Source: Actinomycetota bacterium (GTDB lineage: Bacteria > Actinomycetota > Acidimicrobiia > IMCC26256 > JAENVU01). From it: a DNA stretch of 64,000 nt. Below the pieces are notes generated by a model. The model had not been told where the DNA came from. It searched no databases and saw only the letters and a program-made list of their open reading frames with translations. The stretch spans positions 68,376 to 132,375 of the forward strand of contig VGBT01000001.1 of the NCBI GenBank assembly GCA_016870395.1. Reading direction: 5' to 3'. The translations under genes and the position numbers were made by a program. This document shows, piece by piece, positions 7,377-53,127 of this stretch (position 1 is the first letter of the stretch; each line of letters starts with the position of its first letter).

Positions 7377-9674
7377 ATGACCGGGGACGTCGCCGAGGAG
7401 CCGTTGCACCGCCAGCTCGGCATGACCGACGACGAGCTCGCGGCGGTCGTCGGCGAGCTCGGTCGCGCACCCACCACCCTCGAGCTCGCGATGTACGCGG
7501 TGATGTGGTCCGAGCACTGCTCGTACAAGTCGTCGCGGGTTCACCTCAAGCGGTTTCCGACCGAGGCGCCGTGGGTGCTCGTCGGCCCTGGCGAGGGCGC
7601 GGGCGTGATCGACGTCGGCGACGGCATGGCGGTCGCGGTGCGGATCGAGAGCCACAACCACCCATCCGCGGTCGAGCCCTATCAGGGCGCGGCCACAGGG
7701 GTCGGTGGGATCATCCGCGACATCTTCTCGATGGGTGCCCGGCCCATCGCGCTCATGGACCCGCTGCGCTTCGGGCCGCTCGACGACCCGCGCACCCGCT
7801 ACCTGTTCGAGGGTGTGGTCAGTGGCATCAGCGGGTACGGCAACGCGGTCGGAGTTCCGACCGTCGGCGGCGAGGTGGTGTTCGACGAGTGCTACCGCGA
7901 CAACCCGCTGGTCAACGTGTTCTGCCTCGGGATCCTGCCCCAGGATCGCCTGGTGCTCGCGCGGGCGGAGGGGGTCGGCAACCTCGCGGTGCTCCTGGGT
8001 GCATCGACGGGCCGTGACGGCATCGGGGGCGCGAGCGTCCTCGCGTCGGCGGGGTTCGGGGAGGGCAGTGAGGCGAAGCGCCCGAGCGTGCAGGTCGGCG
8101 ACCCGTTCGAGGAGAAGAAGCTGATCGAGGCGTGCCTCGCGCTGCTCGACGCCGGGCTGGCCGTGGGCGTGCAGGACCTCGGCGCCGCCGGCCTCTCGTG
8201 CGCGGCGAGCGAGACCGCGGCGAAGACCGGCGCCGGCATGGACGTCGACGTCGCGCGCGTCGCGAAGCGGGAGCCGGGCATGACGCCCGTCGAGGTGCTC
8301 ACCTCCGAGAGCCAGGAGCGAATGCTGGCGATCGTCACGCCGCAGAACCTCGGCGAGGTGCTCGCCTTGTGCGAACGCTGGGAGATCCGCGCGGCGGTCG
8401 TAGGCCGGGTCACCGACACTGCGCGCTTTCGCGTCTACAACGGATGGTTCGACGCTCTGAATGTTCCCGGCGAGAACCCGGCGCCGCCGATCGGCGACGC
8501 CGCCCCCGAGGTGTCATCGGACCGGGCTCCGATCGCCGACGTGCCGATCGGCAGCCTCGGCGACGGCCCGTTGTACCACCGTCCGTTCGCGCCGCCGGCC
8601 GACCTGGTCGCGCGGCGCTCGGCGGACCCCGCGGTCGTGCTCGTGCGCGACTTCCCGCCCGGCACGGACTGCTCGTCGGAGCTGCTCGCGCTCCTGGGCT
8701 CGCCGAACGTCGCCGACAAGGCGTGGGTGTCGCGCCAGTACGACCACCAGCTGTTCCTCAACACCGTCGTCGGTCCCGGTGGCGACGCGAGCGTGCTGCG
8801 ACTCAAGGAGACCAGAGGCCGCGCGCTGGCGCTCTCGGTCGACGGCAAGGCGCGGTTCTGCGCGCTGGAGCCGCGCACGGGCGGCCGTCTCGTCGTGCTC
8901 GAAGCAGCGCGCAACGTCGCCTGCAGCGGGGCGCGCCCCGTCGCGCTCGTCAACTGCTTGAACTTCGGAAACCCCGAGCATTCCGAGGTGATGTGGCAGT
9001 TCTCCGAGGTCGTCGACGGGCTGAGCGAGGCCTGCGCCGCGCTCGGCATTCCCGTGATCGGCGGCAACGTCAGCTTCTACAACGAGAGCCGAGGCGCCGA
9101 TATCGACCCCACCCCGGTGGTGGGCGTCATCGGATTGATCGACCGGCTCGACACGAGCCCACCCGGCCTGGGACTGCGCGCCGGTGACCGGATCGTGCTG
9201 CTCGGCGAGACCCGCCCCGAGCTCGGCGGTTCGGAGTGGGCGACACGGCAGGGCTACCGCGGCGGGGTGCCACCGGTCGCCGACCTCGAGGCGGCCCGGA
9301 GGCTGCACGAGCTCGTGGCGGCGCTTGTCGCCGAGCGCGTGCCCGCGGGCTTGCACGACTGCGCGGACGGTGGGTTGGCGGTCACGCTCGCCGAGATGGC
9401 GATCGCGGGGGAGACGGGCTTCCAGGTTTCGATCGGCGGTCCGGTGGAGTGCTTCTCGGAGTCGGCGTCGCGGGTCGTCTGCTCGGTCGCACCCGACCGG
9501 GTTTCCGAGGTGCTCGGTCGTGCGGGGGCCGCGGGCGTGCCGGCGGCGGTGCTGGGAGACGCGGGCGGTGCTCGGCTCCAGGCCGAGCGCGCGTTCGACG
9601 TGCACCTCGACGACGCGACGCACGCCTGGCGCGATGCCCTCCCGACGATCATGAGCGCGGTCGTCGAGCACTGA
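7377..9674 (+). CDS. purL: FGAM synthase large subunit PurL
   Basis: PurL uses ATP and ammonia from PurQ to turn FGAR into FGAM. At 765 residues this is the small type that needs PurS and PurQ, both present upstream. ESHNHPSAVEPYQGAATGVGG near residue 85 is the conserved substrate and nucleotide segment. Two tandem AIR-synthase-like halves follow, with GGNVSFYNES near residue 560. The ATG at 7377 gives the usual short N-terminus; an open frame extends upstream into the ligase remnant, but that extension is not PurL-like. purF follows after 56 bp. Confidence 0.97.
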   Translation: MTGDVAEEPLHRQLGMTDDELAAVVGELGRAPTTLELAMYAVMWSEHCSYKSSRVHLKRFPTEAPWVLVGPGEGAGVIDVGDGMAVAVRIESHNHPSAVEPYQGAATGVGGIIRDIFSMGARPIALMDPLRFGPLDDPRTRYLFEGVVSGISGYGNAVGVPTVGGEVVFDECYRDNPLVNVFCLGILPQDRLVLARAEGVGNLAVLLGASTGRDGIGGASVLASAGFGEGSEAKRPSVQVGDPFEEKKLIEACLALLDAGLAVGVQDLGAAGLSCAASETAAKTGAGMDVDVARVAKREPGMTPVEVLTSESQERMLAIVTPQNLGEVLALCERWEIRAAVVGRVTDTARFRVYNGWFDALNVPGENPAPPIGDAAPEVSSDRAPIADVPIGSLGDGPLYHRPFAPPADLVARRSADPAVVLVRDFPPGTDCSSELLALLGSPNVADKAWVSRQYDHQLFLNTVVGPGGDASVLRLKETRGRALALSVDGKARFCALEPRTGGRLVVLEAARNVACSGARPVALVNCLNFGNPEHSEVMWQFSEVVDGLSEACAALGIPVIGGNVSFYNESRGADIDPTPVVGVIGLIDRLDTSPPGLGLRAGDRIVLLGETRPELGGSEWATRQGYRGGVPPVADLEAARRLHELVAALVAERVPAGLHDCADGGLAVTLAEMAIAGETGFQVSIGGPVECFSESASRVVCSVAPDRVSEVLGRAGAAGVPAAVLGDAGGARLQAERAFDVHLDDATHAWRDALPTIMSAVVEH

Positions 9675-12625: not shown

Positions 12626-13389
12626 GGGGCCTCCCTCACCAGGTCCAGCCGCTGCGCGACCGTGTGCGCGAGCTCGCGGTAGGCGGTCGCGCCGGCCGAC
12701 GCCGGTGCGTGCTCGAGCACCGACCGCCCGACCGCGGGAGCTTCGGCGAAGCGCACCGAACGGGGCACGACCGGCTCGAGCACGGGAAGTCCGTAGCGAT
12801 TGCCGATGTCGGCGACGACCTCGCGCGTGTGGCGGGTGCGGCCGTCGTACATCGTGGCGACCACCCCGAGCACCCGCAGGTCGGGCTGGGTATAGGCGCG
12901 CACGTCGGCCACGGTCTCGAGCAGCTGGCCCACGCCGCGGTGGCTGAGGGTCTCGCACTGCAGCGGGATCACGAGGTGGTCGGCCGCGGTGAGGCCGTTG
13001 ATGGTGAGGATGCCCAGCGACGGCGGGCAGTCGAGGAGGACCACCTCGTAGCGCTCGGCCACCGGTCGCAGCGCCCGGGAGAGCGCGTGCTCGCGACCGA
13101 CCTTGGTGGCGAGGTGCAGCTCGGAGGCGGCCAGGTCGATCGAAGCGGGCACGACGCTGATGCCGGTCGTGTGCACGAGCGCGTCCTCGGCCTTGTTCCG
13201 CCCGATCAGCACGTCGTGCAGCGACACGGGGAGCCGCTCGGGGTCGAGGCCGACCGAGTAGGTGAGGCAGGCCTGCGGGTCGAGGTCGACGAGCAGCACC
13301 CGGTGCCCCCGCTCGGCCAGTGCCGTCCCGAGGGTGTGGGTGGTGGTGGTCTTGCCGACGCCGCCCTTCTGGTTGGCGATGGCGAGCAT
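12622..13389 (-). CDS. ParA/Soj-family ATPase, no ParB partner nearby
   Basis: This is a MinD/ParA-type P-loop ATPase of 255 residues. The deviant Walker A ANQKGGVGKTTT lies at residues 6-17, Walker A' VLLVDLDPQACLT near residue 33, and Walker B VVLLDCPPSLG near residue 115. Such proteins position chromosomes, plasmids or protein clusters by ATP-driven DNA binding. GAGGTGG lies 5 nt before the ATG, which settles the start. It is linked to a zinc ribbon and faces away from bldC. The lack of parB suggests cargo positioning or an orphan role rather than the chromosomal system. Confidence 0.88.
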   Translation of the reverse strand: MLAIANQKGGVGKTTTTHTLGTALAERGHRVLLVDLDPQACLTYSVGLDPERLPVSLHDVLIGRNKAEDALVHTTGISVVPASIDLAASELHLATKVGREHALSRALRPVAERYEVVLLDCPPSLGILTINGLTAADHLVIPLQCETLSHRGVGQLLETVADVRAYTQPDLRVLGVVATMYDGRTRHTREVVADIGNRYGLPVLEPVVPRSVRFAEAPAVGRSVLEHAPASAGATAYRELAHTVAQRLDLVREAP

Positions 13390-49241: not shown

Positions 49242-49586
49242 ATGGAGAACGAAGAGGCCCGCCGCCGGCTCGAGGAAGAGCGTGCGCGCGTCAGCGGGTT
49301 GATCCGCGACGTGCGTCACGAGCTCGACGACGAGATCGCGAGCGAGTCCTCGGAGCTCGCCCACGTCGACCAGCACCCGGCCGACGACGCGACCGACACG
49401 TTCGAGCGTGAGAAGGACCTGTCGATCCTCGACGGGCTCGAGGCCGAGCTGGCCGAGATCGAGGCGGCGATCGCCCGCATCGACGCGGGGACCTATGGCG
49501 TCGACGAGGTGACCGGCGAGCCGATCGACCCCGAGCGGCTCGAGGCGCGCCCCGAGGCGCGCACCAACGTCACCCGCAACCCCTGA
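49242..49586 (+). CDS. TraR/DksA-like protein without the zinc-finger cysteines
   Basis: The product has 114 residues. It has a coiled-coil start (ARRRLEEERARVSGLIRDVRHELDDE), then HPADDATDTFEREKDLSI and LAEIEAAIARIDAGTYGVDEVTGEPIDPERLEARPEA. That last part aligns with the DksA/TraR zinc finger, but every cysteine is missing; for example YGVDEVTGEPI stands where YGxCxxCGxxI would be. It may still bind RNA polymerase's secondary channel through its acidic coiled-coil tip. TAGCCT (49230-49235) is 6 nt before the ATG. Confidence 0.85.
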   Translation: MENEEARRRLEEERARVSGLIRDVRHELDDEIASESSELAHVDQHPADDATDTFEREKDLSILDGLEAELAEIEAAIARIDAGTYGVDEVTGEPIDPERLEARPEARTNVTRNP

Positions 49587-50928: not shown

Positions 50929-51441
50929 ATGGCGCAGCAGCGGCGGCTCGACCGCGTCCTCGAATCCGGCTACCTCGACGGCCTCGACGCCCGCTCGGTC
51001 GAGGCGCTGCGCGAGATGCGCCAAGAGTGCGGGGAGGTGGAGACGGAGGTCTCCTACGTGCGCCGCCTCGCCCACGCGCGGATCGAGATCCTCGAGGCCG
51101 AGACCGAGCGCCGCGCGAACGGCGGGTCGCTCGGCGATCTCATCGAAGCCCTCCCGCGGATCCTCGCCGACTCCGGGGAGCGCACCGCGCCGGCGCGGAC
51201 GCGCCTGCCCGGACCGCTCGCCCCGTCGATGAGCATCGAGTGGAACCGCGGGCTGGAGCGGTTGATCTCCGACGCGACCCTGGCCAACCTGCCGTCGATC
51301 TCCGACGCCGAGCTGGCGAGCACGATCGAGCAGCTGCGTGACCTCGACCGTGAGGTGTCGGCCACGCGCAAGTCGGTGCACGCGGTGATCGACGCGGTCG
51401 ATCGCGCGCTCGCGGCGCGGCTCGCCGTCGGCTCGTCCTGA
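50929..51441 (+). CDS. RsiG-like c-di-GMP-binding anti-sigma family protein
   Basis: The product has 170 residues. RsiG of Streptomyces holds WhiG in a c-di-GMP-dependent complex through two helices carrying E(x3)S(x2)R(x3)Q(x3)D. Here helix one has E38, S42, R45, H49, E53 and helix two D140, S144, R147, H151, D155, so the spacing is exact at both sites but glutamine is histidine in each. The LDRVLESGYLDGLDARSVEALREMR N-terminus also fits the family. TAGCCT (50914-50919) is 9 nt before the ATG. An XRE-type gene follows by 1 bp. No WhiG-like sigma is in the window. Confidence 0.72.
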   Translation: MAQQRRLDRVLESGYLDGLDARSVEALREMRQECGEVETEVSYVRRLAHARIEILEAETERRANGGSLGDLIEALPRILADSGERTAPARTRLPGPLAPSMSIEWNRGLERLISDATLANLPSISDAELASTIEQLRDLDREVSATRKSVHAVIDAVDRALAARLAVGSS

Positions 51442-51442
51442 C

Positions 51443-51826
51443 GTGGCGCCGACGCCGGCGGACGCGGTCGAGGCGCGCCTGCGCGAGCTCGGCGAGTTCA
51501 TCCGTGACCAGCGTCACCGCGATCGTCTCTCGTTGCGGAAGCTGAGCGAGCTCGCCGGGATCTCCAACCCGTACCTGAGCCAGATCGAGCGCGGACTGCG
51601 CAAGCCCAGCGCGGAGATCCTCCAGGCCATCGCGAAGGGGCTGCGGATCTCGGCGGAGAGCCTCTACGTGCGGGCGGGAATCCTCGACGAGCGCGACGGT
51701 GAGGCCGACCTGGTCGACCGCATCATGCGTGACCCGTCGATCACGGAGCGCCAGAAGCAGACCCTGGTCGAGGTGTACCGGTCCTTCCAGCGGGAGCGGG
51801 AACGGGAAACCGAGTCGGCCTCGTGA
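51443..51826 (+). CDS. XRE-family DNA-binding protein
   Basis: The product has 127 residues. A HTH_3 domain fills the N-terminus: LGEFIRDQRHRDRLSLRKLSELAGISNPYLSQIERGLRKPSAEILQAIAKGL. The rest is helical and charged (DLVDRIMRDPSITERQKQTLVEVYRSFQRERE) with no known ligand domain. It is 1 bp after the RsiG-like gene and probably co-translated with it. It might regulate the same developmental or c-di-GMP-linked process. Confidence 0.88.
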   Translation: MAPTPADAVEARLRELGEFIRDQRHRDRLSLRKLSELAGISNPYLSQIERGLRKPSAEILQAIAKGLRISAESLYVRAGILDERDGEADLVDRIMRDPSITERQKQTLVEVYRSFQRERERETESAS

Positions 51827-51891: not shown

Positions 51892-53127
51892 ATGTCGCTG
51901 CGCAGGCTGGCCGTTCTAAGCGTCCACACGTCGCCGCTCGCCCAGCCCGGTGCGGGCGACGGCGGCGGGATGAACGTGTACGTGCGCGCGCTCGCGAGCG
52001 GCTTGGCCCGCGCCGGCGTGGAGTGCGACGTCCTCACCCGCCGCGACCATCCGGGGGAGCCCGACGTGGTGGAGGTGGAGCCCGGGTTCCGGGTGGTGCA
52101 CCTCGACGCGGGCCCGGCCGAGGCGGTGCCCAAGCACGACCTCGTCGACCTCGTCGACCCCATGGCGGAGGCGGTGCTCGCGCGCCTCGCCGAGGGCGAT
52201 CTCCCCTACGACGCGCTGCACGCGAACTACTGGATCTCGGGTGTTGTCGGGCACAGGCTCAAGCACGAGCTCGACCTGCCGCTCGCGGCCACCTTCCACA
52301 CGCTCGCGCGGGTGAAGGCCGAGGCCGGGATGGACGACGACCCCGATCGACGGGCCCGGGTCGAGCAGGAGATCATCAGCTGCGCCGACCTGATGCTCGC
52401 CTCCACCGACGAGGAGCGCGACCAGCTCCGCTCGCTCTACAGCGCGAAGTGCGACCGCATCGAAGTGGTCCCCCCGGGTGTCGACCACGAGGTGTTTCGC
52501 GCGGGCACCGCAGCGGAGCGCGCGGCGGACCGCACCGCGCTCGACCTCGACGGTCGCCACGCCCTGCTCTTCGCCGGGAGGATCCAGCCGCTCAAGGGCG
52601 CCGACCTCGCAGTGCGCACGCTGGCCGCGCTCGACGACCCCGATGCCGTCCTGCTCGTCGTCGGCGGGCCGAGTGGCGGCGCGGGCGCAGCCGAGCTCGA
52701 GTACCTGCACGAGCTCGTTTCCGATCTCGGGCTCCGGTCCCGGGTTCGCTTCGTGCCGCCCCAGCCCCACGAGCGCCTTGCTCGCTTCTACCGCGCCGTC
52801 GACGTGTGCCTGGTGCCGAGCCGTACCGAGTCGTTCGGGCTCGTCGCGCTCGAAGCCGCCGCGTGCGGTACGCCGGTGGTCGCGGCCGCGGTCGGCGGGC
52901 TGTGCTCGCTCGTGCACGACGGCGTGACCGGGTTCCTGGTGGAGGAGCGCGACCCGATCGACTTCGCGGGCCCGGTGTCGACGCTGCTGCGTGACCCGCT
53001 GCTCGCGTCCGAGATGGGCGCGGCCGCGGAGGCCGCGTCGCGCCGGTACGGCTGGAGCATGACCGCGGGCAAGCTGCGGCGGCTCTACAGCGACCTGCTC
53101 GCGCGCGAGCCGGTCTCGTGTCGATGA
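51892..53127 (+). CDS. mshA: Glycosyltransferase MshA (mycothiol synthesis)
   Basis: MshA joins GlcNAc from UDP-GlcNAc to inositol-3-phosphate, the first step of mycothiol synthesis. The product has 411 residues, GT-B fold. LSVHTSPLAQPGAGDGGGMNVYVRALASGLA matches the UDP-sugar loop, NYWISGVVGHRL and TFHTLARVKA the acceptor side, and PSRTESFGLVALEAAACGTPVVAA the retaining-GT E(x7)E motif. TAGGAT (51877-51882) ends 9 nt before the ATG. Its presence supports an actinobacterial origin. Confidence 0.9.
   Translation: MSLRRLAVLSVHTSPLAQPGAGDGGGMNVYVRALASGLARAGVECDVLTRRDHPGEPDVVEVEPGFRVVHLDAGPAEAVPKHDLVDLVDPMAEAVLARLAEGDLPYDALHANYWISGVVGHRLKHELDLPLAATFHTLARVKAEAGMDDDPDRRARVEQEIISCADLMLASTDEERDQLRSLYSAKCDRIEVVPPGVDHEVFRAGTAAERAADRTALDLDGRHALLFAGRIQPLKGADLAVRTLAALDDPDAVLLVVGGPSGGAGAAELEYLHELVSDLGLRSRVRFVPPQPHERLARFYRAVDVCLVPSRTESFGLVALEAAACGTPVVAAAVGGLCSLVHDGVTGFLVEERDPIDFAGPVSTLLRDPLLASEMGAAAEAASRRYGWSMTAGKLRRLYSDLLAREPVSCR

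What the first reader, a model, noticed from the sequence alone, without database searches (positions are those of the whole stretch)
50929..51826. RsiG-like protein whose two c-di-GMP motifs both have histidine for glutamine, linked to an XRE regulator
The E(x3)S(x2)R(x3)Q(x3)D motif of RsiG appears twice with exact spacing (E38/S42/R45/H49/E53 and D140/S144/R147/H151/D155), but Gln is His at both sites and one Asp is Glu. Parallel change in both helices suggests altered ligand preference or affinity rather than decay. No WhiG-like sigma is near; instead an XRE protein follows by 1 bp, which may be the partner.
Basis: partly seen in the sequence, partly recalled or inferred. Interest (0 to 1): 0.62.

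Follow-up and report, generated by a model that had tools for sequence, protein, structure and literature searches.

The report
Ordinary RsiG anti-sigma with common histidines
This is an ordinary Acidimicrobiia copy of RsiG, a protein that uses the signal molecule c-di-GMP to hold back the sigma factor WhiG; the two histidines are common, already studied substitutions, and the gene next door is an old neighbour rather than a demonstrated partner.

Summary
Window 50929-51441 encodes a 170-aa twin-motif RsiG (E38/S42/R45/H49/E53 and D140/S144/R147/H151/D155), and an XRE gene starts 1 bp later. Pfam RsiG gives E=7e-22, and an AlphaFold model (pLDDT 88) matches only the solved RsiG-WhiG-c-di-GMP complexes.

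The interpretation mostly fails. His is not a parallel change. In the order, motif-2 His is the rule (50/50) and motif-1 Gln is the norm (46/50), so only Q49H and E140D mark this genus. The Gln position is labile: at least 11 state changes in motif 1 and 13 in motif 2, with His/His arising repeatedly. The literature already reports His at motif 1. The His-bearing Conexibacter RsiG, a homodimer and so His/His, binds c-di-GMP and not c-di-AMP.

A WhiG orthologue is present elsewhere in the genome (280 bits) with the c-di-GMP-contact residues K/G/R kept, alongside 11 GGDEF matches. The XRE gene lies downstream of RsiG on the same strand across the phylum, usually with other genes between, and persists without RsiG in probable mycobacteria. 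The adjacency is therefore an old neighbourhood made compact here.

Verdict: a new member of a known kind, with minor extras (tight RsiG-XRE pair in this order; relaxed guanine-reading acids).

The parts
50929..51441 (+). [quoted passage not shown]
   Evidence: PF22802 E=7e-22; phmmer 6pfj_T 2.7e-9; AlphaFold pLDDT 88.2, pTM 0.80; Foldseek top 4 hits all S. venezuelae RsiG chains, next hit E=2
50998..51117 (+). codons of the first long helix (residues 24-63), coiled-coil arm 1
   Evidence: DSSP on the AlphaFold model
51040..51087 (+). motif 1: E38 S42 R45 H49 E53
   Evidence: sequence; Q49 in 46/50 order members, H in 4/50; residue 53 E in 27, D in 21, G in 2
51304..51432 (+). codons of the second long helix (residues 126-168), coiled-coil arm 2
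   Evidence: DSSP on the AlphaFold model
51346..51393 (+). motif 2: D140 S144 R147 H151 D155
   Evidence: sequence; H151 in 50/50 order members; D140 only in this genus, 3/50
51443..51826 (+). xre: 127-aa HTH_3 regulator, orthologue of an actinobacterial XRE family linked to HbhA-like and DUF2516 genes (Rv0474-like by inference)
   Evidence: HTH_3 E=3.7e-12; adjacent to rsiG in 45/49 relatives that have both on one locus; downstream on the same strand across the phylum; neighbours in L170/L172
50623..50871 (+). upstream ThiS/MoaD-type sulfur carrier gene, 57 bp before rsiG; context only
   Evidence: PF02597 9.4e-13, TIGR01687 above cut-off
51892..53127 (+). downstream MshA-like glycosyltransferase, 65 bp after xre; context only
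   Evidence: TIGR03449 408.8 bits, below the 462.5 cut-off

Best explanation
The gene is the RsiG orthologue of an acidimicrobial bacterium. Its two long helices form a monomeric antiparallel coiled-coil. When c-di-GMP is high the coiled-coil binds a c-di-GMP dimer through the two motifs, and the loaded RsiG sequesters the genome's single WhiG-type sigma (contig C6), so WhiG target genes stay off; when c-di-GMP falls, WhiG is released. Shown here: family, fold, motif residues, presence of WhiG with its c-di-GMP-contact residues, and presence of diguanylate cyclase domains. Inferred: actual binding, anti-sigma activity and the regulon. H49 and H151 are expected to stack on the guanines as Gln does, and the acids at 53 and 155 with R45 and R147 to read guanine. 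The downstream XRE gene is probably co-transcribed but most likely independent in function.
For: PF22802 and 6pfj matches. AlphaFold and Foldseek give only RsiG chains. S42, R45, S144 and R147 are invariant in 99 twin-motif sequences. WhiG in the own genome is 280 bits, over the FliA_WhiG cut-off of 189.6; its best solved relative is S. venezuelae WhiG, 3.5e-93, with K57/G61/R62 conserved; KGR in 26 and KSR in 2 of 28 WhiG orthologues read. 11 GGDEF matches in the genome. RsiG found in 54 of 61 relatives. Published: Gln stacks on guanine while Asp and Arg give specificity; Conexibacter RsiG with His binds c-di-GMP at 25 uM alone and 1.7 uM with WhiG, not c-di-AMP.
Against: No binding or interaction measured. 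rsiG and whiG are unlinked, though they are unlinked in Streptomyces too (own knowledge). No convincing WhiG promoter set was found in this genome: 18 two-mismatch sites against 5 in the reversed control, none perfect, and the one placed before a diguanylate cyclase gene is not conserved in congeners. The two congeners have G53, so motif 1 may bind more weakly in this genus.
Confidence: 0.85

Rival explanations
1. The His/His pocket changes ligand preference or affinity, for example towards c-di-AMP or another dinucleotide, or makes binding pH-sensitive.
For: Q49H and E140D are fixed in the genus on one stem branch, and residue 53 has drifted to E or G. A lower c-di-GMP affinity is possible: His-bearing RsiG of C. 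woesei 25 uM against Gln-bearing 12 and 6.5 uM.
Against: The residues that read guanine (R45, R147, D155, acidic 53) are kept. His/His arose in at least four places of the tree. The published His/His homodimer does not bind c-di-AMP. The position tolerates L, F, I and M in motif 2 of other clades.
Confidence: 0.07
2. RsiG here acts with the adjacent XRE protein: a c-di-GMP-dependent complex of RsiG with XRE controls DNA binding by XRE, in addition to or instead of WhiG.
For: The two genes are adjacent on one strand in 45 of 49 relatives, often with overlapping or touching ends. The order RsiG then XRE is kept across the phylum on one strand in 44 of 46 same-contig cases.
Against: In other clades genes lie between them: 0.4-3 kb in most, 4-25 kb in genomes that look like Streptomyces. 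XRE exists without a listed RsiG match in family f54 (probably mycobacteria) and in family f25 of the same class. WhiG is present and canonical. XRE has no known c-di-GMP domain.
Confidence: 0.06
3. Motif 1 is degenerating in this genus, so that RsiG binds the c-di-GMP dimer asymmetrically through motif 2 or responds only to higher c-di-GMP.
For: Residue 53 is E in the window and G in both congeners (L004, L005); nine of 50 order members lack an acid at 53 or 155, but never at both.
Against: E at 53 occurs in 27/50 of the order, so it is a stable variant. S42 and R45 are invariant.
Confidence: 0.12

Closest known systems
RsiG of Streptomyces venezuelae (PDB 6PFJ, 6PFV), twin-motif monomer
   Same: Length, twin motifs with exact spacing, antiparallel helix pair, Foldseek top hit at 28% identity, canonical WhiG in the genome, and the same downstream XRE neighbour in genomes that look like Streptomyces.
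   Different: H49 and H151 for Q, E53 for D, D140 for E; probably a non-sporulating acidimicrobial host, so sporulation is unlikely to be the output (inference).
RsiG of Conexibacter woesei (single-motif homodimer with His; PMC8325347)
   Same: His at the stacking position of both helices of the assembled pocket.
   Different: Single motif, small protein acting as a homodimer; motif otherwise E-S-R-H-D.
Rv0474 / MSMEG_0918 XRE family (for the neighbour gene)
   Same: XRE orthologue at 53-59% identity in family f54 genomes, followed in the one examined by an HbhA-like gene and DUF2516. The naming as mycobacterial Rv0474 and HbhA is inferred from gene order and recalled sequence.
   Different: Next to rsiG and an mshA-like gene in the window; the copper response reported for Rv0474 is untested here and its copper motif is absent even in MSMEG_0918.

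Membership tests
RsiG (PF22802) | Sequence match above the curated cut-off | tested here: met
   77.3 bits, cut-off 27, two stretches
RsiG (PF22802) | Antiparallel coiled-coil fold of the RsiG-WhiG complex | tested here: met
   AlphaFold pLDDT 88.2, pTM 0.80; Foldseek hits 6pfv/6pfj probability 1.00, nothing else significant
RsiG (PF22802) | Twin E(x3)S(x2)R(x3)[Q/H](x3)D motif | tested here: met
   Spacing exact in both; acid swaps at 53 (E) and 140 (D) are conservative. The published motif is already also written with [Q/H]
RsiG (PF22802) | Cognate WhiG sigma in the same genome with c-di-GMP-contact residues K, G, R | tested here: met
   G000:C6:81517-82188, 280 bits over a 189.6 cut-off; KFVAGR aligned to K57/G61/R62
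RsiG (PF22802) | Binds c-di-GMP | not testable with these tools
   Needs protein; 11 GGDEF matches suggest that the signal can be made
RsiG (PF22802) | Sequesters WhiG only with c-di-GMP | not testable with these tools
   Needs pull-down or two-hybrid
Rv0474-like XRE regulators (neighbour gene) | Orthology by sequence and gene order | tested here: inconclusive
Rv0474-like XRE regulators (neighbour gene) | Copper-responsive autorepression | not testable with these tools
   Reported for Rv0474 only

The most novel reading that the evidence does not exclude
In this order the RsiG-XRE gene pair is a functional unit: c-di-GMP-loaded RsiG also binds or tunes the XRE repressor, so one c-di-GMP receptor controls both a sigma factor and a DNA-binding regulator.
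Probability: 0.06. Interest if true: 0.55.

Novelty: new member of a known kind. Interest (0 to 1): 0.2.

Why it matters
It closes the suggestion of a new ligand specificity: the His/His state is common, repeatedly evolved and already represented among biochemically tested proteins. It extends the published RsiG survey (3 of 4 Acidimicrobiales genomes) to 54 of 61 relatives of this genome and to 248 of 396 genomes of the phylum. It also shows that the stacking position of motif 2 is variable (Q, H, L, F, I, M), whereas the published logo named motif 1 as the only exception. And it documents an old rsiG-xre chromosomal neighbourhood, which helps to find RsiG in genomes by gene order.

Tried and rejected
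WhiG regulon: the flagellar consensus TAAA-N14..16-GCCGATAA has no exact match in this genome, and across 61 genomes it is no commoner than the reversed control. With two mismatches and N15 there are 18 sites against 5 control. One lies 42 bp before the ATG of a GGDEF gene (C25:12655-12681) and another near a second GGDEF gene, as in Rubrobacter, but the first is not found upstream of the orthologues in the two congeners even with three mismatches, so I do not claim it. BldD relationship of the XRE: its Pfam scan gave only HTH families, so rejected. The NCBIfam search gave no RsiG model. The genome-contig scan with one protein found only two close relatives, so the genome search was used instead. 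The 304-aa and 870-aa ORFs antisense to the locus are taken as ordinary high-GC open frames.

Full report
What is there. Window 50929-51441 (+) encodes a 170-aa protein and 51443-51826 (+) a 127-aa protein, one base apart. Pfam PF22802 (RsiG) matches at 77.3 bits against a cut-off of 27, E=7e-22, in two stretches. phmmer against solved structures finds S. venezuelae RsiG (6pfj_T, listed as AmfC) first at 2.7e-9 over almost the whole length, then the Rubrobacter RsiG chains. An AlphaFold model from an 82-sequence alignment has mean pLDDT 88.2 and pTM 0.80, with two long helices, residues 24-63 and 126-168. Foldseek gives four significant hits, all RsiG chains of 6PFV/6PFJ, TM about 0.65; the next hit has E=2.

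Where it comes from. The genome (2.98 Mb, 97 contigs) belongs to the class Acidimicrobiia. The related locus L003, from a record titled 'Acidimicrobiia bacterium isolate FR_2', has the same coordinates as G023, which is in the same order as the window. RsiG is found in 54 of 61 genomes searched, the window's own included.

Is the double histidine special? No. In 50 twin-motif RsiGs of the order (window included), motif 2 has His in all 50 and motif 1 has Gln in 46 and His in 4. So the window differs from most relatives by Q49H, and with its two congeners by E140D. Residue 53 is E in 27, D in 21 and G in 2; the G cases are the two congeners. Elsewhere in the phylum (42 sequences) motif 1 is Q in 30 and H in 12, and motif 2 is Q in 19, L in 10, H in 5, F in 4, I in 3 and M in 1. 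On a maximum-likelihood tree built without five of the motif columns (the Gln/His position of both motifs among them), the fewest state changes are 11 for motif 1 and 13 for motif 2. His/His appears in at least four separate places (this genus; L084; L131-L133; L093; L155 too, on a long and uncertain branch). Many inner branches of that tree are weak, so the counts are approximate. The serines and arginines of both motifs are invariant in all 99 sequences.

What the literature says. Schumacher et al. 2021 (PMC8325347) state that the motif-1 Gln is frequently His, that His can make the same stacking contact with guanine, and that guanine specificity comes from the Asp and Arg. They measured RsiG of Conexibacter woesei, which has His. 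Because that protein is a single-motif type, shown to act as a homodimer, its assembled pocket is His/His (inference from their text). It binds c-di-GMP at 25 uM alone and 1.7 uM with WhiG, and neither it nor its complex binds c-di-AMP. They also list RsiG in 3 of 4 Acidimicrobiales. Their statement that motif 1 is the only exception to the conserved motif does not hold in the wider sample here.

The sigma partner. The own genome has three FliA_WhiG matches, and the best, G000:C6:81517-82188, is 280 bits against a cut-off of 189.6. It lies next to a XerC-type recombinase reading frame (recognised by sequence). Its best solved relative is S. venezuelae WhiG (3.5e-93), and the residues that touch c-di-GMP there (K57, G61, R62) are present as K, G and R. 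In 28 WhiG orthologues that could be read (this genome and its relatives), the trio is KGR in 26 and KSR in 2. The genome has 11 GGDEF matches. The absence of WhiG next to rsiG is therefore no argument for another partner.

The XRE neighbour. In 49 relatives with both genes on one locus, XRE is on the same strand, and in 45 it starts within about 130 bp of the RsiG end, often touching or overlapping (two of the computed gaps are negative beyond 200 bp, apparently from a misplaced frame, and the raw coordinates show that those pairs are adjacent). Across the phylum sample, of 49 genomes with both matches listed 46 have them on one contig; 44 of the 46 are on the same strand with XRE downstream, mostly 0.3-3 kb away (4-25 kb in the large complete genomes of family f49, probably Streptomyces). 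An asparaginase-like gene follows rsiG in L146 and in the f49 locus L171 (recognised by sequence, not scanned). In family f54, probably mycobacteria, XRE is present and no RsiG match was listed. In the f54 locus L170 it is followed by an HbhA-like gene and a DUF2516 gene; a DUF2516 gene also follows, with one gene between, in the f49 locus L172. So XRE is an old neighbour, probably an Rv0474-type regulator, brought next to rsiG in this class. Rv0474 is reported as copper-responsive and its M. smegmatis homologue lacks the copper motif; nothing here tests that. Co-transcription is likely from the spacing; a joint function is possible but unproven.

Mechanism. The most likely mechanism is the known one: c-di-GMP dimer bound by the two helices, loaded RsiG holding WhiG inactive, release when c-di-GMP falls. 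Steps shown are family, fold, residues, partner gene and signal-making domains. Steps inferred are binding, sequestration and output. I looked for the output through the flagellar promoter consensus and found no conserved evidence.

What is left that is mildly new. Nine of 50 order members lack the guanine-reading acid in one of the two motifs (G53, or H, A or G at 155), never in both, which suggests tolerance for asymmetric reading of the c-di-GMP dimer. The motif-2 stacking position is freely variable. The tight rsiG-xre gene pair is a feature of the order. None of these makes it a new kind of system.

Noticed in passing
L002 (CAMBEL010000004.1): A record titled 'Bifidobacterium breve' MAG has the coordinates of G002, a congener of this acidimicrobial genome (RsiG 67-68% identical, same rsiG-xre pair): the public label looks wrong.
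   Followed up: partly
G009:C55, G014:C5, G015:C81, G026:C217, G032:C38, G040:C100, G042:C1, G048:C1: In several relatives a second FliA/WhiG-type sigma, other than the main WhiG, lies about 20-32 kb from rsiG on the same contig; it may be a flagellar sigma and a second possible RsiG client. None at that strength in the window's genome.
   Followed up: no
L019, L024, L026 (H155); L029, L032 (A155); L030, L085 (G155); L004, L005 (G53): Loss of the guanine-reading acid in one motif only, never both, in nine of 50 RsiGs of the order.
   Followed up: partly
G000:C25:12655-12681 and 9042-9068: Two-mismatch WhiG-like promoter sites near two GGDEF genes, as reported for Rubrobacter; the site at 12655 is not conserved in congeners.
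   Followed up: yes
window 49242-49586: A DksA/TraR/YteA-like protein (TIGR02890 100.7 bits, below cut-off) lies a few genes upstream of rsiG.
   Followed up: no
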